Source: a virus
Length of the DNA stretch: 60,936 nucleotides
IMG/VR virus record: IMGVR_UViG_3300028592_000010
Location: 1 to 60,936 of that record
Strand: one strand, 5' to 3'
Position 1 is the stretch's first letter, and each line of letters begins with the position of its first letter. Below are positions 1 through 60,936 of this stretch, one piece after another. Under the pieces are notes generated by a model. It was not told the DNA's origin, did not search any database, and was given only the letters and a program-made list of their open reading frames with translations. Position numbers and translations under genes: made by a program.

Positions 1-132
1 CCCCGAGGGGCCCCGGCTGGGGCCCCCTCACTGCATGTGAGGAGGAGTGTGTTGGAACCGGTTCTGGAGCCGTTCATCGGCGACATCCGGGTGCAGGCCT
101 ACACGTTCCCGTCGCTGGCGGGGCGGCTGCCG
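1..132. repeat. left copy of the terminal direct repeat
   Basis: Bases 7-132 are identical to 60811-60936. The match continues outward except that a G run is four long here and five long in the right copy. It contains a terminator hairpin and the start of the first gene. The overlap shows a circular or terminally redundant molecule; the one-base difference suggests a homopolymer error in this copy. Confidence 0.95.
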
Positions 133-580: not shown

Positions 581-615
581 GGGCAGACAACATGTCACTG
601 GAAGGACTGACGATC

Positions 616-1911
616 ATGACAGACCGTGGCACGGCAAGCATCGAAGAACTCTTGCGCGCGCTGGAAGACGCGCACTTCACCGTGACCTCGGTGGGCGCAA
701 GGTACCGGGTCACCCACCCTGACGGTGGGCGTCCCACCTTCGTACCCAAGCGGCTGCCCAAGGGCGCCAGCCTCAAGCTGGTCATGGGGTCGCTCATGGA
801 CATCGGGTTCGACACGGACTCGGTGGAGCGGGCCCGGGAGGCGCGGCGTAAGGCGCGCGTCGAGCAGGCCCGCAAGGAGGGCGAACGGCTCAACAACATC
901 GCAGCAGCGGCGGCGGCCCAGCGCACGGCCGAGGCGGCCATCGCGACCGAGGCGGCGCGCGACGAGCGCCTGTACCAGGGCCAGCACAAGCTTCCCGACC
1001 TGCTCATCGAGACCCGGCTGCCCCGCACCGACTTCGTGGAGGTCGACGCCAAGTTCGCCGAGGAGTTGCTGCGGGCGAACCGGTTCTACGAGCCCGGGGC
1101 GACCCATGCGGGCAAGACCAACCGCAAGTTCCGGCCCGAGTTGGCCCGCAGGTACCGCGACCAGATGCTGCGCGGCGAGTGGGACCAGTTCACTCACCAG
1201 GCCATCGGCCTGGACGTGGAGGGCGACCTCGTGGACGGCCAGCACCGGCTGGCCGCCATCGTCCTGGCCGGGGAGGTCAAGCCGGACATCCGCATCCCCA
1301 TGCCGATCACCTACGACCTCCCGGTGGGCTCGTTCGACCGCATCGACCTCGGGCTGAAGCGCTCCCTGGGCGATGTGCTGGCCATGCACGGCTTCACCGA
1401 CGTCAACCACATCGGCGCCGTGCTGCGGTGGGTGGCGCTCTACGACACGCTCATCGGCGACCCGCCCGTGCCGTATGACCTCAGCACCTGGAAGCACTTC
1501 GGGCTCTCCGGTGAGCAGGCGTTGCACATGCTTCGTGATGAGCCCACCGTCCCGGAGAACTCACGCGCGGGTGTGCGGTTCCGCAAGATCATGCTGCCTT
1601 CGGCGGCGGGCACTGCCATCCATCTGCTCAAGCGCTACTGGCGGGCCGACCTGGTGGACGGGTTCGTGGACCGGCTGTACTCGGGCTACGACCTCGCGCC
1701 CCGCTCGGCCCTCGGGGCCCTGCGGGACGCCTACGTGACCCAGGCCTCCAACCGGAAGTACAAGCGGACCACGGTGGAGCAGTTGGCCCTGTGGATCAAG
1801 GGGTGGAACCTGCACCTCACCGGCAAGGAACGGAGCTTGCTGACGTGGCGGTCGCACGAAGAGTTCCCGCTGATCGACCTGCCCAAGAAGCGCGAGCACG
1901 AGCCCCGCTAG
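616..1911 (+). CDS. ParB-like nuclease-fold protein with HicA-like N-terminus
   Basis: The ATG at 616 is chosen because GGAAGGA lies about nine bases upstream; ATG 592 and GTG 577 are in-frame alternatives. Residues 1-70 (an IEELLRALED helix, then RYRVTHPDGG) resemble the small HicA-type RNA-binding fold. After an alanine-rich helical linker, residues 140-260 carry a ParB/Srx-like core with the signature DGQHRLAAI. Actinophages often encode such proteins; they may bind or nick DNA, but the function is not established. The stop is TAG, one of the minority of amber stops in this genome. Confidence 0.75.
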   Translation: MTDRGTASIEELLRALEDAHFTVTSVGARYRVTHPDGGRPTFVPKRLPKGASLKLVMGSLMDIGFDTDSVERAREARRKARVEQARKEGERLNNIAAAAAAQRTAEAAIATEAARDERLYQGQHKLPDLLIETRLPRTDFVEVDAKFAEELLRANRFYEPGATHAGKTNRKFRPELARRYRDQMLRGEWDQFTHQAIGLDVEGDLVDGQHRLAAIVLAGEVKPDIRIPMPITYDLPVGSFDRIDLGLKRSLGDVLAMHGFTDVNHIGAVLRWVALYDTLIGDPPVPYDLSTWKHFGLSGEQALHMLRDEPTVPENSRAGVRFRKIMLPSAAGTAIHLLKRYWRADLVDGFVDRLYSGYDLAPRSALGALRDAYVTQASNRKYKRTTVEQLALWIKGWNLHLTGKERSLLTWRSHEEFPLIDLPKKREHEPR

Positions 1912-3500: not shown

Positions 3501-3783
3501 CCGGGTCGAGCACTTCCGGCGGCGCCGCTACGCCTACTGCCCGCACGAGGGCGTGGCGCGGTTCACGGTCGTCGACTACTGGCTGGCCTACCCGCCGCTG
3601 TACTGGTGCACCGGGTGCGGCTGGTCCTGGGAGCCCGGCGACAAGCCAGTGCCGCCCGAGCCCGGCCAGGGGGCCGTCGCGGCCCGGCGGGCCCACTCCC
3701 TCCTCCCGCCGCTGGACGCGGCGGCGTGGCGCAAGTTCATTCGGCAGATCAGTGAGGACTCAGAGCAGGAGGCAGCAGCGTGA
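3487..3783 (+). CDS. small zinc-ribbon-like protein
   Basis: This encodes 98 residues with a Cys-His pair near the start (YCPHEGVARF) and CTGCGWSWEPGD in the middle, the layout of a short zinc ribbon. ATG 3487 is preferred; GTG 3478 is in frame. It overlaps the VWA stop and the ParB-like start on either side, so it belongs to the same operon. Its function is unknown. Confidence 0.65.
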   Translation: MSSPDRVEHFRRRRYAYCPHEGVARFTVVDYWLAYPPLYWCTGCGWSWEPGDKPVPPEPGQGAVAARRAHSLLPPLDAAAWRKFIRQISEDSEQEAAA

Positions 3784-4466
3784 CCGACCAGCAGGCCAGC
3801 GACCGGGTGACCCACGACCTCAGCGTGGAGTACGTCGACATCGACACGGTGGCCGAGCACCCGGACAACCCCCGGCGCGGCAACACGCAGGTGATCGTTG
3901 AGTCGCTGCGCCGCACCGGTCAGTACCGGCCCCTGATCGTTTCGGCTGCGACGGGCTACGTGGTGGCCGGCAACCACACGCTGCGCGCGGCGCGGCTGCT
4001 CAACTGGGACCGGATCGCGGTCACCTGGCTGCACGGCCTGTCCGAGGAGGCAGAGCACCGCATCCTGGCCGTGGACAACCGGGCTGCCGACCTCGGCGAC
4101 TACGACACCGAGGCACTGATCGCCCTGCTGGACAACCTCGGCGAACTGGAGGGCACCGGCTACTCGGTGGACGACCTGGAGACCTTGCAGGCCCTGGCGG
4201 GCCGCGAGGTCACGTTCGCGGCGGGCGACACCGACGCGCACTACTCGGGCACCGACGCCGAGCGGGCCGAGCGGGCCGAACAGATCGGCAACTACCAGCC
4301 GCTCAAGGCGCAGGGTCTGGCCGAGGTCATCCTGGTGCTCACCGAGGCCAAGAAGACGCAGATGATCGACTGGCTCCAGGTGCTCCGCGCCAAGTGGGGC
4401 GACCAGATGACCAACGGGGAGTTGGTCTACGCGGCCGTGGCTCGCGCGGTGGACGCCGAACAGTGA
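3780..4466 (+). CDS. ParB-like N-terminal domain protein
   Basis: The first 100 residues match the ParB/Srx domain: VEYVDIDTVAEHPDNPRRG, then VVAGNHTLRAARLL and a VDNRAADLG turn. In phages this domain often sits beside DNA-modification genes, and here the next three genes are a modification set, so it may present or nick target DNA. The GTG start overlaps the previous stop. No separate DNA-binding HTH is obvious in the C-terminal 80 residues. Confidence 0.85.
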   Translation: MTDQQASDRVTHDLSVEYVDIDTVAEHPDNPRRGNTQVIVESLRRTGQYRPLIVSAATGYVVAGNHTLRAARLLNWDRIAVTWLHGLSEEAEHRILAVDNRAADLGDYDTEALIALLDNLGELEGTGYSVDDLETLQALAGREVTFAAGDTDAHYSGTDAERAERAEQIGNYQPLKAQGLAEVILVLTEAKKTQMIDWLQVLRAKWGDQMTNGELVYAAVARAVDAEQ

Positions 4467-5410
4467 CCTCGTACGAGATCGGAGAGCGGGCGGGGCGCAT
4501 CGCCAAGCTGTGGACCCCGGGCGTGATCGACGACTACGCCCGGTTCCACTGGCTCGCCCTGGAGACTGGCGACGTGGACCCGGTCTACCCGGTGCTGCGC
4601 AAGCTGGAGATGGGCGTCAGCGACCTGGTGTGGCTGTCCTTCCTGCACGTCGCCTACTACGACCTCGGCTCGGCCCTGCGCGCCTTCGCCCGGCTGTCGT
4701 GGCGCCCCACCGAGGAGGTCCCCAACGCGGTGCTGCACTACCCGTGCGGCACCGAGCGGCGGGCGCACCGCGACCCGAGCCAGTTGCTGCGCCACCTGGA
4801 ATCCCTGCGGGCGCTGGCCGATCACTTCCAGGGCTTGCACCGTTTTGTGACAAGCGCCACCAGCTACGGGGACCTGTTCGGCAGGGTCATCTCCATCTGG
4901 GGTAACGGCCGGTGGGCCGCCTACAAGACCTGTGAGTTGCTGGCCTACGCGTTGGACCGGCCCGAGTGGGAGCCCACCGACATGGGGCACGCCCACTCCA
5001 CCGGCCCCCGCAAGGGGCTCGCGCTGATCTACGGCGGGCGCCTGCCCGAGGGCAACGGGCCCGCCGCCATTCACACCCTCAACACCTTGTCGGGCTGGCT
5101 CGTCAACGAGTTGGGCCGCCGCGACCTGGTTGCCAGTCAGGCGACCGCCGAGACCACCCTGTGCGACTTCCACTCCCTGGCTGGGGGCCGCTACTACGTG
5201 GGGCACGACATCGACCAGATGGGCATGCAGATCCGGCGCGGGCTGGAGACGGAGCGCCTGCACTACGAGGAGGGCCAGTCCGCCGCCCTGCGGTTCCTGC
5301 TCGACGCCAACCAGCGTGCGAGCGCGACGTTCGCCCATTGGGGCAACGACATCGACAAGGGCCGCCGACAGGTCTACAAGTTGACGGGAGAGATCCTTGA
5401 TCCACGTTGA
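4463..5410 (+). CDS. amino acid:DNA transferase-like protein (aGPT-PPlase family)
   Basis: I assign this 315-residue helical protein to the alpha-glutamyl/putrescinyl-thymine pyrophosphorylase group, which has a DNA-glycosylase-like fold and transfers an amine to a phosphorylated 5-hydroxymethyl pyrimidine in DNA. Visible features are a WLSFLHVAYYDLGSALRAF helix, a hairpin-like IWGNGRWAAYKTCELL segment and conserved CDFHSLAGGRYYVGHDID. The assignment rests partly on context: an FAD enzyme and a P-loop kinase follow directly, each overlapping. GTG 4463 overlaps the ParB-like stop. The fold call is a recognition, not a measured match. Confidence 0.65.
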   Translation: MTSYEIGERAGRIAKLWTPGVIDDYARFHWLALETGDVDPVYPVLRKLEMGVSDLVWLSFLHVAYYDLGSALRAFARLSWRPTEEVPNAVLHYPCGTERRAHRDPSQLLRHLESLRALADHFQGLHRFVTSATSYGDLFGRVISIWGNGRWAAYKTCELLAYALDRPEWEPTDMGHAHSTGPRKGLALIYGGRLPEGNGPAAIHTLNTLSGWLVNELGRRDLVASQATAETTLCDFHSLAGGRYYVGHDIDQMGMQIRRGLETERLHYEEGQSAALRFLLDANQRASATFAHWGNDIDKGRRQVYKLTGEILDPR

Positions 5411-6314
5411 GGGGATGGGCTGGTTCGGCGCGGTGACCGCGCTCGCGCTGGAGCGGGCCGGCATCGAGTTCACCTGGTCCGACATCGACTCGCCCACCCA
5501 GGCCTGGAAGGCCTCCACCGGCATCGTCTACCCGGCCGGAGACGACCGCACCGAGCGGGAGCGCCTGTCCTGGACCCGGTGGTGGCTGAGTGACGACTGG
5601 CTGCCCGACCACACGGTGCGGCCCGTCACCTACGGCTTCACCCACAAGGCGCCACCGCATGGCGGCAAGTACGAGTGGGCCCGCTGGTCCTACGTGCCCG
5701 AGGTGAAGATCGCCGCCAAGCACGCCTTCGCGGTCGATGTGCAGGCCATCGTGGTCGAGGCCCGTTCCCGCTTCGCCGAGCGGCGCTGCGAGTACGTGGA
5801 CCCGGCGCGGTCGAAGATTGTCGCTCACGGCGCGCGCCGAGCGGTCGGCTGGGTGTGGGGCTGGAGCCGCAAGGTCAACCTGCGCTGGCCCGGTGGGGTT
5901 GAGGCGGACGGCATGAGCCTGTACGGCAAGGTCCACCGGTTCGGCCTCTGCTACGCCTACCCGGTGGGGGCCCAGCCGGGCTGGTGGTGGGCCGGCTCGG
6001 CCCTGGTCAACGAGAGGCGCCCCCGGGAGCGCGACGGGCGCGAGTTGGCCGACTACTACGAGCGCTGGCGCTCCGACTTCGCCCGGCTCTACCCCGGAGT
6101 GGACGTGGTGGAGTCCGGTCATGAGCCCATCCGGCAGGGCTGGCGGCCCAAGCCAAGCGAGAGCGATCCGGCGCTGCTGGGACTCACCGACACGCGGTGC
6201 GTCTTCCCGGCCCTGTGGCACTCGGGCGTGCGCTGGGCGCCCTCGTTGGTGGAGGGAGCGGTGCAGTGGGCAACTCGCGTGACCTCTTCTACGTCATCGG
6301 CCCTCCAGGCGTAG
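5397..6314 (+). CDS. FAD-dependent oxidoreductase/lyase of the modification pathway
   Basis: TTG 5397 follows GGGAGAG and gives a protein starting with a Rossmann dinucleotide site (VEGMGWFG, then an acidic residue ending the second strand, SDID). STGIVYPAGD and a C-terminal CVFPALWHSGVRWAPS resemble D-amino acid oxidase-like flavoproteins. Flavin-dependent lyases are known to trim amino acids attached to 5-hydroxymethyl-dU in phage DNA, and this gene sits between the transferase-like and kinase genes. It ends in TAG and overlaps the kinase by 49 bases. Confidence 0.75.
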   Translation: MIHVEGMGWFGAVTALALERAGIEFTWSDIDSPTQAWKASTGIVYPAGDDRTERERLSWTRWWLSDDWLPDHTVRPVTYGFTHKAPPHGGKYEWARWSYVPEVKIAAKHAFAVDVQAIVVEARSRFAERRCEYVDPARSKIVAHGARRAVGWVWGWSRKVNLRWPGGVEADGMSLYGKVHRFGLCYAYPVGAQPGWWWAGSALVNERRPRERDGRELADYYERWRSDFARLYPGVDVVESGHEPIRQGWRPKPSESDPALLGLTDTRCVFPALWHSGVRWAPSLVEGAVQWATRVTSSTSSALQA

Positions 6315-6838
6315 GCAAGTCCTCCCTGATGGCCGCCCTCACGGTGCGCTGCCACCGCTGGCCGAACGCCAAGCCGTTCCGCTACGACCTGCTCCGGGGC
6401 CCCTCGGGCTACGAGTTCGTCGAGTTGGGCGGTCAGCGCATCGGCGGGTTCCCCGGCACGGACGGCATGTCGATGTCGGTCCAGCCCCGGGTGGAGGAGT
6501 GGCTGCACCAGACCCGGGTGCCGCTCGTCCTCGGTGAGGGTGACCGCCTGGGCAACACCAAGTTCTTTGAGGCGGCGGTGCACGCAGGGTGGCGCCTGAA
6601 CGTTGTCGCCCTGATGGCCGACCGTAAAGAGTTGGATCGGCGCTGCCGGGAGCGCGGCTCGGAACAGTCCGAGACGTGGCGCAAGGGCCGGTTCACGAAG
6701 GTGGCCAACGTGACCAACTGGCTGACCACGGCCCATCCCGGCAGCGTCCGGCTGGTCACGGCCGACCGAACCCCGGGCACGCTGGTCGCGGCCCTGCGAC
6801 CGAGCTACCCGGACATCTTCGCCCTGCTGGAGGACTGA
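6266..6838 (+). CDS. P-loop nucleotide kinase, candidate 5-hydroxymethyl-pyrimidine DNA kinase
   Basis: GTG 6266 lies eight bases after GGAGGGA. Residues 12-20 are a clear Walker A loop, GPPGVGKSS. An acidic VLGEGDRLG strand could serve as Walker B, and an ELDRRCRERG lid helix is followed by a TADRTPG segment. At 190 residues it is the size of small nucleoside kinases. Next to a transferase-like protein and an FAD enzyme, it probably phosphorylates the hydroxymethyl base in DNA to activate it for amine transfer. An ordinary nucleotide kinase role cannot be excluded. Confidence 0.8.
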   Translation: MGNSRDLFYVIGPPGVGKSSLMAALTVRCHRWPNAKPFRYDLLRGPSGYEFVELGGQRIGGFPGTDGMSMSVQPRVEEWLHQTRVPLVLGEGDRLGNTKFFEAAVHAGWRLNVVALMADRKELDRRCRERGSEQSETWRKGRFTKVANVTNWLTTAHPGSVRLVTADRTPGTLVAALRPSYPDIFALLED

Positions 6839-9073: not shown

Positions 9074-9468
9074 CCGACTGGGAAGCGCTGACCGCGCTCC
9101 AGATCATTGACCGGCTGCGCGACACGATCGTGGCCATGGGCCAGTACGTGGCCGGCCTGGAGTCCGAGGCACTGGAGACCGAACGCTCGGTGGCGTTCTG
9201 GACCGAGGAGGCCCGGCGCTACGCGGGCAACGCCGACTACTGGCGGGCGCGGACCACCGAGGCGGAGCGGGTCATACAGGCCGCGCGCGCCATGCCGGGG
9301 CACGAGCCGACCGAGGGGGAGCCCATGTGGTGCTGCCGCCTCCAGGACGCCCTGGCGACCTACGATCAGTGGCGGAAGGGGGGTAGCGATGATCGAGTTG
9401 CGAGTGCGGAGCCGACTTCGCCAGGAGGACCTGCTGCCCAAGACCGGCAAGGTGCTGGGCCCGGCTGA
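9070..9468 (+). CDS. helical protein, 3' end uncertain
   Basis: GTG 9070 starts a protein with a long amphipathic helix (ALETERSVAFWTEEARRY). The final 30 residues overlap the dioxygenase gene by 80 bases and look like out-of-frame sequence. A six-G run just before 9384 is followed by TAG in another frame, so the natural end may be near 9386 if that run is one base short. Confidence 0.5.
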   Translation: MTDWEALTALQIIDRLRDTIVAMGQYVAGLESEALETERSVAFWTEEARRYAGNADYWRARTTEAERVIQAARAMPGHEPTEGEPMWCCRLQDALATYDQWRKGGSDDRVASAEPTSPGGPAAQDRQGAGPG

Positions 9469-10270
9469 CTACGACGTGCTGCTCACCGGCCCCGCCAAGG
9501 TGCTCAAGCCGGACGGCAAGCCACTGTGCGTCTACCTTCCCGGCGCCCTCCGCGAATGGTCGCAGAGTGACACCATCTACGCCATTTTGCACGGGCTACG
9601 CACACACACCACCAACAACCGGGGCATGAGCGGCGGCGCAGGCGTCGACACCTCCCCCAGCGGCAAGCGCTACGCCCAGACCACCGCGTCCACCATCATC
9701 GGCGCCTTCGACCCGAACAGTTACCGCCGCTACTGCCGCCTCACCGCCTGGACCGGGCGCAACCTGCCGCAGTGGGAGGCGCTCCAGCCGTTCCTCGCCG
9801 CCATCGCCGAGCGGATGGCCGAGCACGTTCCCGACCGGCACGGGGCCCAGATGGCCGAGGTCATGCGCACCCAGCCCGAGTGGGTCGTGCCGGGCACCCC
9901 GTTCACCACGGTCACGGTCAACAACACCTACCCGACCGGGATGCACACCGACAAGGGCGACCTCGATGCCGGGTTCTCCACCCTCGCCACACTGCGCCGA
10001 GGCGGCGCGTATACGGGCGGCAACCTGATGTTCCCCGAGTACCGGTGCGCCGTGGACATGCGCGACGGAGACCTGCTGCTCATGGACGCCCACGAGTGGC
10101 ACGCCAACGCCGACATCGTCTGTGCCTGCGGAAACTCCATCCGGGCGATCTGTCCGACGTGCGGGGCGGAGCGCATCTCGGTGGTGAGTTACTTCCGCAC
10201 CGACATGGTCAACTGCAAGGACGCGGCCACCGAGGAACGGCGGGCCGCCGAGTGGTGGGCGAAGCGGTGA
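9389..10270 (+). CDS. TET/JBP-family 2-oxoglutarate/Fe(II) dioxygenase
   Basis: The ATG follows GGAAGGGGGG. The protein has 293 residues and a double-stranded beta-helix signature: VNNTYPTGMHTDKGD supplies HxD (H186, D188), DAHEWHAN supplies the distal His (H235 or H238), and ERISVVSYFRTD supplies the Arg near 270 that binds 2-oxoglutarate. This pattern is typical of phage TET/JBP enzymes that oxidise the methyl group of thymine or 5-methylcytosine in DNA. Between the distal His and the Arg lies a CACGN...CPTCG insertion, a likely zinc knuckle. It could supply the hydroxymethyl base used by the kinase/transferase set at 4463-6838. Confidence 0.85.
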   Translation: MIELRVRSRLRQEDLLPKTGKVLGPADYDVLLTGPAKVLKPDGKPLCVYLPGALREWSQSDTIYAILHGLRTHTTNNRGMSGGAGVDTSPSGKRYAQTTASTIIGAFDPNSYRRYCRLTAWTGRNLPQWEALQPFLAAIAERMAEHVPDRHGAQMAEVMRTQPEWVVPGTPFTTVTVNNTYPTGMHTDKGDLDAGFSTLATLRRGGAYTGGNLMFPEYRCAVDMRDGDLLLMDAHEWHANADIVCACGNSIRAICPTCGAERISVVSYFRTDMVNCKDAATEERRAAEWWAKR

Positions 10271-17728: not shown

Positions 17729-17744
17729 GTCCATGACGGGAACG

Positions 17745-17815
17745 GGACCGCACGGGGAGTCGAACCCCGCCTAGGCGCTTTAGAGGCGCTTGTGCTGCCG
17801 ACACACCCTGCGGTC
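17745..17815 (-). tRNA. suppressor tRNA, anticodon CUA (reads UAG)
   Basis: Read on the minus strand, GACCGCA pairs with TGCGGTC over seven bases. The D stem is GTGT/GCAC with GG in the loop. The anticodon arm is AGCGC-CTCTAAA-GCGCC with U33 followed by CTA, and the T arm is CGGGG-TTCGACT-CCCCG. The anticodon (17781-17783) is CUA. Weak points are an A-C mismatch closing the anticodon stem, G at position 8 and a four-base variable loop. CCA is not encoded. Charging specificity cannot be seen. Confidence 0.7.
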
Positions 17816-21943: not shown

Positions 21944-21986
21944 GGCCGTGCTCCCTTCAGTGCTCCCGCCCGGTAGCGGGGAGACG

Positions 21987-22057
21987 TGGACCCGGCGGGA
22001 TTTGAACCCGCATCCTCCGGCCGATCGCCGGTGCTCTACCAGTGAGCTACGTGGCCC
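21987..22057 (-). tRNA. degenerate tRNA, anticodon not readable
   Basis: The minus strand shows a canonical D arm (GCTC-ACTGGTA-GAGC) and T arm (GCGGG-TTCAAAT-CCCGC). The acceptor pairs only partly (GGGCC with GGTCC). The anticodon stem CCGGC/GCCGG leaves a five-base loop, GATCG; forcing seven bases gives no U33. It is probably a pseudogene or a tRNA with a deleted anticodon loop. Confidence 0.5.
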
Positions 22058-45515: not shown

Positions 45516-46922
45516 GTGACCAACCCGCTCAACCGGGTGGCCAAGGCGTACGTCGAGATCACCGCCGACTACGACAAGTTCCGCGACGAGGCGACCACAA
45601 AGATCAACGCGGCGCTGCGCGATGTCGGGCGGAACCTCCACACCGACGCGGTGCGCGACAAGCTGGGCGACGCTGGGCGCGAAGCGGGCCAGGTGTTCAG
45701 CAAGGAGTTCGACGACACCATCCGCAACGAGTTCCGCACCTCGGCGCGCAACGCGGTGCGGGTCATCTCATCTGAGGCGAATAGTGGCGGCAACCGGTCA
45801 CTGCTGCGCCGCACGTTCGGTGACATCGGCCGCTTCGCCGCCCTGGCCCTCGGTTCCGGGATCGCGGGCGTGATCGGGGGAGGCTCGGGCGTCGGCAAGG
45901 TGTTCGAGGCATTCAAGGCGGGCGGCTCGATTCTTTCGGCCGTGTTCGACTCGCTGGGCTCGGGCTTCGGCCAGTTCCTGATCAAGGCGGGCCTGGGCAT
46001 CGTCATCATCCCGCACCTGGCGGGCGTGATTCTGGTGCTCGTCGCCAACCTGACCTCGCTGATCGGCCTGCTCAACGTCCTGCCCGGGGTGACTGCGCTG
46101 GCCCTCGGCGCGCTCATCCCGTTGATCATCGCCTTCCAGAACTTCGGCGGCGCGCTTCAGGCCGTGATGGAGGGTGACCCGGAGAAGATCAACGAGGCGC
46201 TCAAGAAGCTCGCGCCCTCGGCGCGCGCGGTCGTCAAGGAGTTCCAAGGTCTCCTGCCAGTGTTCCGCGCGATTCAACTCGCCACTCAGCAGGCGTTCTT
46301 CGGCCCACTCCAGGGCGTGCTTTCCGAAGTCATCAGCGTTATCGGCCAGGGCCGCATCACCCAGGGCCTGGTCAACGTCGCCGACGCCTGGGGCAAGTTC
46401 CTGGCCGTCATCCTGCGGGTCGGGGAGAGCCCGGCCTGGATGCGGCTCAACGAGACCATCTTCGGCAACTCGGAGCAGGCGGGTGCCATCGCTCGGGCGC
46501 TCGGCGCTATCGGGCCGCCGCTAGAGCACCTGCTGGAGGCGTTCGCCAACGCGGCCACCACCTCCATGCCAATCATCGAGAAGCTGGTGGCCGCGTTCGG
46601 CCAGGCCATCGACAACTTCGCCGAGTTCATCCAGGGCACCGTCGAGGACGGCTCGTTTAACCAGTTCCTGCGCGACGCGCTTCAGACCACCGGCGACTTG
46701 AAGGATCTGGTGCACGAACTCCTCGCCCTGTTCTACGCGATCTTCCAGGCGACCGACGACGGCGGGGAGCGGTTCCTCCAGAAGGTCACCAAGGCGATCC
46801 ACGAGTTGACGGAGTTCTTCCAGTCGGAGGACGGCAACGGGCCATGGAGGCGATGGTCTCGCTGGCCGAGGCGTTCGCCTACTTCCTGGGCCTGGCCGCC
46901 AAGGCCCTGGCCGGCATCCTGA
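45516..46922 (+). CDS. tape measure protein, N-terminal part (frameshifted)
   Basis: GTG 45516 has no ribosome site. The frame encodes a helical protein with long hydrophobic segments (ALGSGIAGVIGGGSGVG, GLGIVIIPHLAGVILVLVANL) typical of tape measures. After SEDGNGP near 46843 the frame turns into Arg/Trp-rich nonsense while the next frame carries the real continuation. A missing C in GGGCC[C]ATGG would restore one protein of about 596 residues. It sets tail length and is ejected with the DNA. Confidence 0.8.
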   Translation: MTNPLNRVAKAYVEITADYDKFRDEATTKINAALRDVGRNLHTDAVRDKLGDAGREAGQVFSKEFDDTIRNEFRTSARNAVRVISSEANSGGNRSLLRRTFGDIGRFAALALGSGIAGVIGGGSGVGKVFEAFKAGGSILSAVFDSLGSGFGQFLIKAGLGIVIIPHLAGVILVLVANLTSLIGLLNVLPGVTALALGALIPLIIAFQNFGGALQAVMEGDPEKINEALKKLAPSARAVVKEFQGLLPVFRAIQLATQQAFFGPLQGVLSEVISVIGQGRITQGLVNVADAWGKFLAVILRVGESPAWMRLNETIFGNSEQAGAIARALGAIGPPLEHLLEAFANAATTSMPIIEKLVAAFGQAIDNFAEFIQGTVEDGSFNQFLRDALQTTGDLKDLVHELLALFYAIFQATDDGGERFLQKVTKAIHELTEFFQSEDGNGPWRRWSRWPRRSPTSWAWPPRPWPAS

Positions 46923-60803: not shown

Positions 60804-60936
60804 CCCCGAGGGGGCCCCGGCTGGGGCCCCCTCACTGCATGTGAGGAGGAGTGTGTTGGAACCGGTTCTGGAGCCGTTCATCGGCGACATCCGGGTGCAG
60901 GCCTACACGTTCCCGTCGCTGGCGGGGCGGCTGCCG
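60804..60936. repeat. right copy of the terminal direct repeat
   Basis: Identical to the left end apart from one extra G in the hairpin G run. It re-enters the first gene, so the true circular genome is about 60.8 kb. Confidence 0.95.
60808..60833 (+). terminator. terminator hairpin after the DUF932 gene
   Basis: A perfect 11-bp stem (60808-60818 with 60823-60833) has a GGCT loop, nine bases after the stop. The left copy has one G fewer in the stem. Confidence 0.8.

What the first reader, a model, noticed from the sequence alone, without database searches (positions are those of the whole stretch)
4463..6838. DNA-base hypermodification set: transferase-like protein, FAD enzyme and DNA kinase
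Three overlapping genes encode a protein I assign to the aGPT-PPlase/amino acid:DNA transferase group, a Rossmann FAD enzyme and a P-loop kinase (GPPGVGKSS). Known thymidine hypermodification pathways in phages phosphorylate 5-hydroxymethyl-dU, attach an amino acid and trim it with, among others, flavin-dependent lyases. The same three activities in one operon predict an amino-modified pyrimidine in this phage's DNA. The transferase assignment is the weakest link.
Basis: partly seen in the sequence, partly recalled or inferred. Interest (0 to 1): 0.85.

Follow-up and report, generated by a model that had tools for sequence, protein, structure and literature searches.

The report
Phage thymine-hypermodification cassette with TET oxygenase
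This soil actinobacteriophage carries a five-gene set that very probably turns some thymines of its DNA into amino-bearing thymines to dodge bacterial restriction enzymes, and it appears to start from ordinary thymine with a TET/JBP oxygenase rather than from the special nucleotide used by the studied phages.

Summary
The three genes are real and correctly read. The 'weakest link', 4463-5410, is an amino acid:DNA transferase (PF18724, E=1e-13); its model matches the solved PaMx11 5-phosphomethyl-dU glycinyltransferase (Z 21.1). 5397-6314 has the DAO/glycine-oxidase fold and distantly resembles the phage flavin-dependent lyases. 6266-6838 is a P-loop kinase (PF18751). The window has 126-nt direct terminal repeats, so the genome looks complete; it has no C5-methyltransferase, no thymidylate-synthase-type hydroxymethylase and no HMUDK_hel protein. 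The same set recurs in Gordonia, Rhodococcus, Mycobacterium and Microbacterium phages and viral contigs: 29 of 37 non-redundant neighbourhoods carry ParB+TET+ADDT+FAD+kinase; TET and the TS/HMUDK_hel route never co-occur. Most likely: TET/JBP hydroxylates T to 5hmdU, the kinase phosphorylates it, ADDT adds glycine, the flavoenzyme trims it to 5-aminomethyl-dU. The enzymology is inferred from homologues; no nucleoside was measured. The cassette type was annotated in 2025 for Rhodococcus phage Tonitrus, so this is a new member of a TET-entry variant of a known kind. Most interesting open claim: a phage TET that hydroxylates thymine, like kinetoplastid JBP.

The parts
3780..4466 (+). ParB-like protein (228 aa), first gene of the set; role inferred: DNA binding/targeting
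   Evidence: PF02195 E=1e-3, below Pfam cut-off; phrog_723 ParB-like E=4e-38; near the set in most relatives
4463..5410 (+). Amino acid:DNA transferase (ADDT, formerly aGPT-PPlase2), 315 aa; probable 5-PmdU glycinyltransferase
   Evidence: PF18724 E=9.8e-14; family profile hits PDB 25qc 1.7e-41 and 8z2m 3.2e-28; model pLDDT 90.8 matches 8z2m Z 21.1
5397..6314 (+). FAD enzyme of the DAO/glycine-oxidase fold (305 aa); probable flavin-dependent lyase
   Evidence: model pLDDT 86.1; DAAO, iminodiacetate oxidase, glycine oxidase, MnmC at Z 20-22; hhalign with the PaMx11-lyase-type family E 1.3e-5, prob 80; that family hits 'Flavin-dependent lyase' 8z2o 5.9e-61
6266..6838 (+). P-loop DNA kinase (190 aa), probable 5hmdU DNA kinase; start GTG 6266 by homologues
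   Evidence: PF18751 Ploopntkinase3 E=6.8e-23 (given from 6260); GPPGVGKSS; its family profile also recovers the M6 and PaMx11 kinases at E<=1e-5
9389..10270 (+). TET/JBP 2-oxoglutarate/Fe(II) dioxygenase (293 aa); probable thymine hydroxylase that makes 5hmdU in DNA
   Evidence: PF12851 E=2.8e-16, 59.6 bits, cut-off 34.9; HTD (H186, D188) and RISVV (R262) motifs; a TET lies within 6 kb of ADDT in 31 of 37 neighbourhoods

Best explanation
A post-replicative thymine hypermodification pathway. Step 1 (inferred): the TET/JBP dioxygenase hydroxylates the methyl group of thymine in phage DNA, giving 5-hydroxymethyl-dU. Step 2 (inferred from homologues): the P-loop kinase phosphorylates it to 5-phosphomethyl-dU (5-PmdU). 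Step 3 (inferred from family and structure match): ADDT replaces the phosphate with glycine, giving N-alpha-glycinyl-thymine. Step 4 (inferred from fold and gene pairing): the flavoenzyme oxidises the glycine and releases it as glyoxylate, leaving 5-aminomethyl-dU (5-NmdU). The ParB-like protein probably targets or holds the machinery on DNA (speculative). The positively charged base would block host restriction. My odds: DNA base hypermodification 0.93; thymine as the target 0.8; glycine as donor 0.7; aminomethyl as end product 0.6.
For: Families: ADDT, Ploopntkinase3, TET/JBP above Pfam cut-offs, ParB by PHROG. Structures: ADDT closest to the 5-PmdU glycinyltransferase gp46/PUGT of PaMx11; FAD enzyme closest to amine/amino-acid oxidases including glycine oxidase and MnmC, which trims glycine from a modified tRNA uridine (MnmC chemistry from my knowledge). 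The GxRP arginine is invariant in the window-type FAD family (R250) and in the PaMx11-type family; in DAAO and glycine oxidase this arginine binds the substrate carboxylate (my knowledge). PaMx11 has ADDT-FAD-acetyltransferase-kinase-HMUDK_hel-TS in a row. Entry by TET: no PF00145 and no PF00303 in the window or in five complete relatives; 126-nt direct terminal repeats suggest a complete genome. Of 37 non-redundant neighbourhoods, 31 have TET, 3 have TS plus HMUDK_hel, none has both. Whole-record searches find TS and HMUDK_hel only in the TS-type set. Two TET clades split by a 100/100 branch alternate on the ADDT tree, at least 3 changes forced by supported branches: the TET is swapped yet a TET stays.
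Against: No nucleoside or enzyme has been measured. The TET sits 2.5 kb from the kinase behind small genes, and its clade also occurs in phages in which no ADDT was seen nearby (Cr30, HTVC112P, P12024L). The kinase belongs to Ploopntkinase3, not to the HMUDK_HMUD1 family of M6, and HMUDK_hel is absent. The window FAD family resembles the PaMx11 lyase only distantly (BLAST E=1e-3 over 57 residues; hhalign prob 80), and the lyase entries 8z2o/8z79 are not among the 50 structures shown for its model. The ADDT search was seeded with TET-linked ADDTs, so TS-linked ones are under-sampled.
Confidence: 0.65

Rival explanations
1. Cytosine route: a host or unrecognised methyltransferase makes 5mC, TET oxidises it to 5hmC, and kinase, ADDT and FAD enzyme build an amino-modified cytosine.
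For: Phage TETs are described as working with C5-methyltransferases and glycosyltransferases on cytosine (PMC12730594, citing others; Burke et al. 2021 is known to me by title only). 6 of 40 related records do carry a PF00145 match. P12024L, of the window's TET clade, has TET next to a glucosyltransferase and an annotated methyltransferase.
Against: No PF00145 in the apparently complete window genome, in five complete relatives or in 34 of 40 contigs; none in P12024L, Cr30, DLP_6 or HTVC112P either. The solved ADDT relative is named for a thymine-derived substrate, 5-PmdU. TS-type 5hmdU synthesis and TET exclude each other in the sets.
Confidence: 0.12
2. Same thymine pathway but a different end product: another amino acid donor, or a FAD enzyme that oxidises without cleaving (for example to a keto or imino product), or the glycine adduct remains.
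For: Window-type FAD proteins are a distinct subfamily, tryptophan-rich, with only distant similarity to the PaMx11 lyase type. FAD types alternate on the ADDT tree (5 changes). Other sets carry a GNAT gene, or rSAM/PLP genes instead, and LilMcDreamy has an Asp/Arg-hydroxylase-like gene there.
Against: Both FAD subfamilies occupy the same place near ADDT, share the DAO fold or family and the GxRP arginine; the closest ADDT structure uses glycine by its title.
Confidence: 0.2
3. The set modifies something other than virion DNA (RNA or host DNA), or is decayed.
For: ADDT has no activity shown in this phage group; 2OG oxygenases and DAO enzymes also act on RNA or small molecules (general knowledge; one search lists MnmC and small-molecule oxidases).
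Against: All five frames are intact and conserved across phages of several host genera; ADDT belongs to a DNA-acting family and its fold is shared with DNA glycosylases.
Confidence: 0.05

Closest known systems
Pseudomonas phage PaMx11 thymidine hypermodification cassette (gp46 glycinyltransferase, gp47 flavin-dependent lyase, gp48 acetyltransferase, gp49 kinase, gp50 HMUDK_hel, gp51 TS; PDB 8z2m/8z2n, 8z2o)
   Same: Homologous ADDT (PF18724), DAO-type FAD enzyme and P-loop kinase in the same order
   Different: Window has TET/JBP and ParB; lacks the TS-type hydroxymethylase, HMUDK_hel and a recognisable GNAT; its kinase is Ploopntkinase3; its FAD enzyme is a distant subfamily
Rhodococcus phage Tonitrus putative thymidine hypermodification system (PMC11955845, 2025) and the uncharacterised equivalents in Gordonia (CaiB group), Mycobacterium (Phelemich, Reprobate) and Microbacterium (Kozie) phages
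   Same: TET/JBP, ADDT, P-loop kinase, FAD enzyme, and ParB-like gene except in Kozie
   Different: In the window TET is downstream and belongs to another TET clade; gene order differs; neither system has been tested as far as I found
Pseudomonas phage M6 and Salmonella phage ViI pathways (5-NedU, 5-NeOmdU)
   Same: ADDT family (M6 gp51, E=1.4e-46) and DNA kinase; amino acid-derived thymine adducts
   Different: M6 has TS-type hydroxymethylase, HMUDK_hel, rSAM and PLP enzymes and no TET
Kinetoplastid base J pathway (JBP1/2 + glucosyltransferase)
   Same: TET/JBP dioxygenase hydroxylating T in DNA, then decoration (works like; inferred)
   Different: Decoration by phosphorylation and an amino acid, not by glucose
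Phage TET / C5-methyltransferase / glycosyltransferase cytosine systems (Burke et al. 2021, title only read)
   Same: Phage TET
   Different: No PF00145 methyltransferase in the window genome

Membership tests
Amino acid:DNA transferase (ADDT, PF18724) | Profile score above the curated cut-off | tested here: met
   52.1 bits against 26.2, residues 34-240
Amino acid:DNA transferase (ADDT, PF18724) | Fold of the solved glycinyltransferase PUGT/gp46 | tested here: met
   8z2m Z 21.1, 244 residues, rmsd 2.7; next family Z 11.1
Amino acid:DNA transferase (ADDT, PF18724) | Transfers an amino acid to phosphorylated 5hmdU in DNA | not testable with these tools
   needs enzyme assay
Phage flavin-dependent lyase (PaMx11 gp47 type) | DAO-superfamily FAD fold with GxGxxG and GxRP motifs | tested here: met
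Phage flavin-dependent lyase (PaMx11 gp47 type) | Clear sequence membership in the same subfamily | tested here: inconclusive
   BLAST E=1e-3; hhalign prob 80, E 1.3e-5; 8z2o/8z79 not among the structures listed for the model
TS-entry thymidine hypermodification pathway (M6/ViI/PaMx11) | Thymidylate-synthase-type dUMP hydroxymethylase | tested here: not met
   PF00303 absent in the window record
TS-entry thymidine hypermodification pathway (M6/ViI/PaMx11) | HMUDK_hel protein (PF18723) beside the kinase | tested here: not met
   absent in window and all TET-type records searched, present in M6, PaMx11, L063, L065
TS-entry thymidine hypermodification pathway (M6/ViI/PaMx11) | HMUDK-type P-loop kinase | tested here: inconclusive
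   window kinase hits PF18751, with no PF18748 match listed, but the family profile recovers the M6 and PaMx11 kinases
TET/JBP dioxygenase (PF12851) | Profile score above cut-off | tested here: met
   59.6 bits against 34.9; whole-record search 61.9 bits
TET/JBP dioxygenase (PF12851) | HxD iron ligands and 2-oxoglutarate-binding Arg | tested here: met
   HTD (H186, D188) and RISVV (R262); the distal His was not placed with certainty
TET/JBP dioxygenase (PF12851) | Substrate thymine (JBP-like) or 5mC (TET-like) | not testable with these tools
   inferred as thymine from gene context only
TET + C5-methyltransferase cytosine system | C5-cytosine methyltransferase in the phage | tested here: not met
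   PF00145 absent in the window

The most novel reading that the evidence does not exclude
A phage TET/JBP enzyme hydroxylates ordinary thymine in finished DNA (a prokaryotic counterpart of JBP1/2) and thereby replaces the whole nucleotide-pool route (hydroxymethylase, and its HMUDK_hel partner) as the entry to amino-thymine hypermodification in a widespread group of actinobacteriophages.
Probability: 0.68. Interest if true: 0.7.

Novelty: new variant of a known kind. Interest (0 to 1): 0.52.

Why it matters
In the studied phages, 5hmdU is thought to be made as a nucleotide and incorporated by the phage polymerase (PMC6449724), so the phage must rebuild its thymidine pool. A TET-entry route needs none of that: it would let a phage that replicates with host enzymes install a charged thymine after replication, possibly at chosen sites. 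It would also be a bacterial-virus counterpart of the thymine hydroxylation known from kinetoplastid base J, relevant to where TET/JBP enzymes come from. The gene sets occur in cultured phages of Gordonia and Mycobacterium smegmatis, so one LC-MS run can decide it.

Tried and rejected
Nucleotide-level search of the first 20 kb against known phages gave no useful relative. BLAST of the kinase against the PaMx11 kinase gave nothing; only the family profile links them. ADDT is not the HMUDK_hel protein: no similarity to PaMx11 gp50. phmmer of the TET against PDB found nothing significant. The FAD family alone hits no PDB sequence significantly; structure was needed. In VIA, the lyase entries 8z2o/8z79 did not appear among the 50 rows shown for the FAD model; this is not evidence against. 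Considered and set aside: queuine-type modification (phrog_6059 'queuine tRNA-ribosyltransferase', and the DUF2419 queuine salvage fold match at Z 11) because the TET profile and the PUGT match are far stronger. The pathway papers of Lee et al. 2018/2022, Iyer et al. 2013, Burke et al. 2021 and Wen et al. 2024 are not held in full; statements about them rest on citing papers or on my memory and are marked so.
Full report
WHAT WAS CLAIMED.

All three frames are open, overlap and read on the + strand. 4463-5410 scores 52.1 bits against PF18724, amino acid:DNA transferase (cut-off 26.2, E=9.8e-14); the kinase scores 81.6 bits against PF18751 Ploopntkinase3 (E=6.8e-23). The FAD gene has no Pfam match of its own, but relatives exist in seven Gordonia phages and Rhodococcus phage Tonitrus at 38-45% identity. 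Homologues place the kinase start at GTG 6266.

TWO MISSED PARTNERS. Directly upstream, 3780-4466 is ParB-like (phrog_723 E=4e-38). Downstream, 9389-10270 is a TET/JBP dioxygenase (PF12851, 59.6 bits, cut-off 34.9) with an HTD iron-ligand motif and a RISVV arginine motif.

THE WEAKEST LINK IS STRONG. A model of the transferase on 34 sequences has mean pLDDT 90.8. Its best match in the PDB is 8z2m/8z2n, '5-phosphomethyl-2'-deoxyuridine (5-PmdU) glycinyltransferase gp46/PUGT' of phage PaMx11 (Foldseek E 9e-6; VIA Z 21.1, 244 residues, rmsd 2.7 A). The next families, the queuine salvage enzyme DUF2419 and HhH DNA glycosylases, are at Z 11 and below. The family profile also hits 25qc (1.7e-41) and 8z2m (3.2e-28) by sequence.

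THE FAD ENZYME. The model (mean pLDDT 86.1) is a DAO-superfamily flavoenzyme: D-amino acid oxidase, iminodiacetate oxidase and glycine oxidase at Z about 22, MnmC at 20.4. A second FAD family stands in the same place in most related sets and includes PaMx11 gp47; its profile hits the PDB entries 'Flavin-dependent lyase' 8z2o and 8z79 at 6e-61 and 9e-61. The window family aligns with it along its whole length (hhalign prob 80, E 1.3e-5) and shares the G-x-R-P arginine, invariant in both alignments. In glycine oxidase and DAAO this arginine holds the substrate carboxylate (my knowledge), which fits a glycine adduct. Lyase activity is inferred, not shown.

A RECURRENT SET. 58 viral contigs encode a relative of the transferase. 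Profiles built here find, next to it, ParB, TET, FAD and kinase genes again and again. After removal of near-copies and of truncated neighbourhoods, 37 remain: 29 have ParB+TET+FAD+kinase, two more have TET with kinase, three have thymidylate synthase plus HMUDK_hel, three have neither. No neighbourhood has both TET and TS. Whole-record searches agree: thymidylate synthase in 2 of 40 records, both of the TS type; HMUDK_hel in 4 of 41, namely M6, PaMx11, L063, L065; no TET in M6, PaMx11, L063 or L065. The seed alignment was made of TET-linked transferases, so TS-linked ones are under-sampled; the exclusion matters more than the percentages.

TET IS REPLACED BUT NOT LOST. The TETs form two clades separated by a fully supported branch (100/100); the window TET belongs to the one that also holds TETs of Caulobacter phage Cr30, DLP_6, HTVC112P and P12024L, the TETs of Tonitrus, CaiB, Phelemich, Kozie and LilMcDreamy to the other. 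On the transferase tree the TET-I label needs 6 changes, of which 3 are forced by supported branches. So the TET was exchanged several times while the association stayed, as expected if it supplies a needed step.

WHY THYMINE. The window ends in a 126-nt direct repeat (7-132 = 60811-60936), so the genome appears complete at about 60.8 kb. It encodes no PF00145 C5-methyltransferase and no PF00303 protein, and neither do five complete relatives. A C5-methyltransferase match occurs in 6 of 40 related records. With no phage 5mC, T is the simplest methyl-bearing substrate. The scanned genes give a replication initiation protein/helicase loader and a RecT-like protein but no DNA polymerase, which fits modification after replication by host enzymes; not every small gene was scanned.

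MECHANISM. T -> 5hmdU (TET) -> 5-PmdU (kinase) -> N-alpha-glycinyl-thymine (ADDT) -> 5-aminomethyl-dU + glyoxylate (FAD enzyme). Shown here: gene identities, folds, linkage, absence of the other entry route. Inferred: every reaction. Speculative: ParB as targeting factor. In the studied phages the kinase seems to set a TG/TC preference (PMC6449724).

WHAT IS KNOWN. A 2025 genome note lists for Tonitrus a ParB-like gene, a TET-like gene, an aGPT-Pplase2 gene, a kinase and a hypothetical protein as a possible thymidine hypermodification system (PMC11955845). Wen et al. [quoted passage not shown] Iyer et al. 2013 predicted phage TET/JBP roles in complex base modification (memory; full text not held). 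The window is therefore a new member of a TET-entry variant that has been annotated but, as far as I could find, not tested.

VERDICT.

Noticed in passing
window 7-132 and 60811-60936: Identical 126-nt direct repeats at both ends: the record looks like a complete genome with terminal redundancy or a circular assembly.
   Followed up: yes
window 592-1911: About 440-aa protein with a DGQHR-like motif (weak DndB hit, phrog_5931 E=1e-35); it lies upstream of the ParB gene and might belong to DNA modification or its sensing.
   Followed up: no
L003, L005, L007, L008, L074 annotations; phrog_800 and phrog_6059: The set's kinase is widely annotated as 'terminase small subunit' and the TET as 'queuine tRNA-ribosyltransferase' or 'SNF2 DNA repair protein'; these names look misleading.
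   Followed up: partly
L005:2656-3759 (Mycobacterium phage LilMcDreamy): In place of the FAD enzyme stands an Asp/Arg beta-hydroxylase-like protein (PF05118 E=1.5e-10), suggesting a different finishing step.
   Followed up: no
L053, L059, L060, L061, L062: Sets with rSAM and/or PLP enzymes instead of the FAD enzyme; L053 combines them with TET, which would predict a TET-entry analogue of the M6 base. L059 and L060 have ParB and kinase but no TET or TS found.
   Followed up: partly
L033, L035, L038, L042, L044, L047, L051, L058: A GNAT acetyltransferase gene lies beside the TET-type set (profile seeded with PaMx11 gp48), which would predict an acetylated aminomethyl-dU.
   Followed up: no
window 17744-17815, - strand: ARAGORN calls a tRNA with anticodon CTA (labelled Pyl); TAG is the stop of 15 of 102 predicted genes, so suppression is unproven. 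A tRNA-Asp with the odd anticodon ATC is at 21986-22056.
   Followed up: partly
window 45516-46922: Tape-measure-like frame of only 468 aa that ends in implausible composition; a frameshift (sequencing or programmed) is likely near its end.
   Followed up: no
L069 (Streptomyces africanus contig NZ_MUKA01000058), L070 (Brevibacterium sp. contig): Only two relatives of the transferase were found in the bacterial genome collection; the first appears to be the same contig as IMG/VR locus L019.
   Followed up: no
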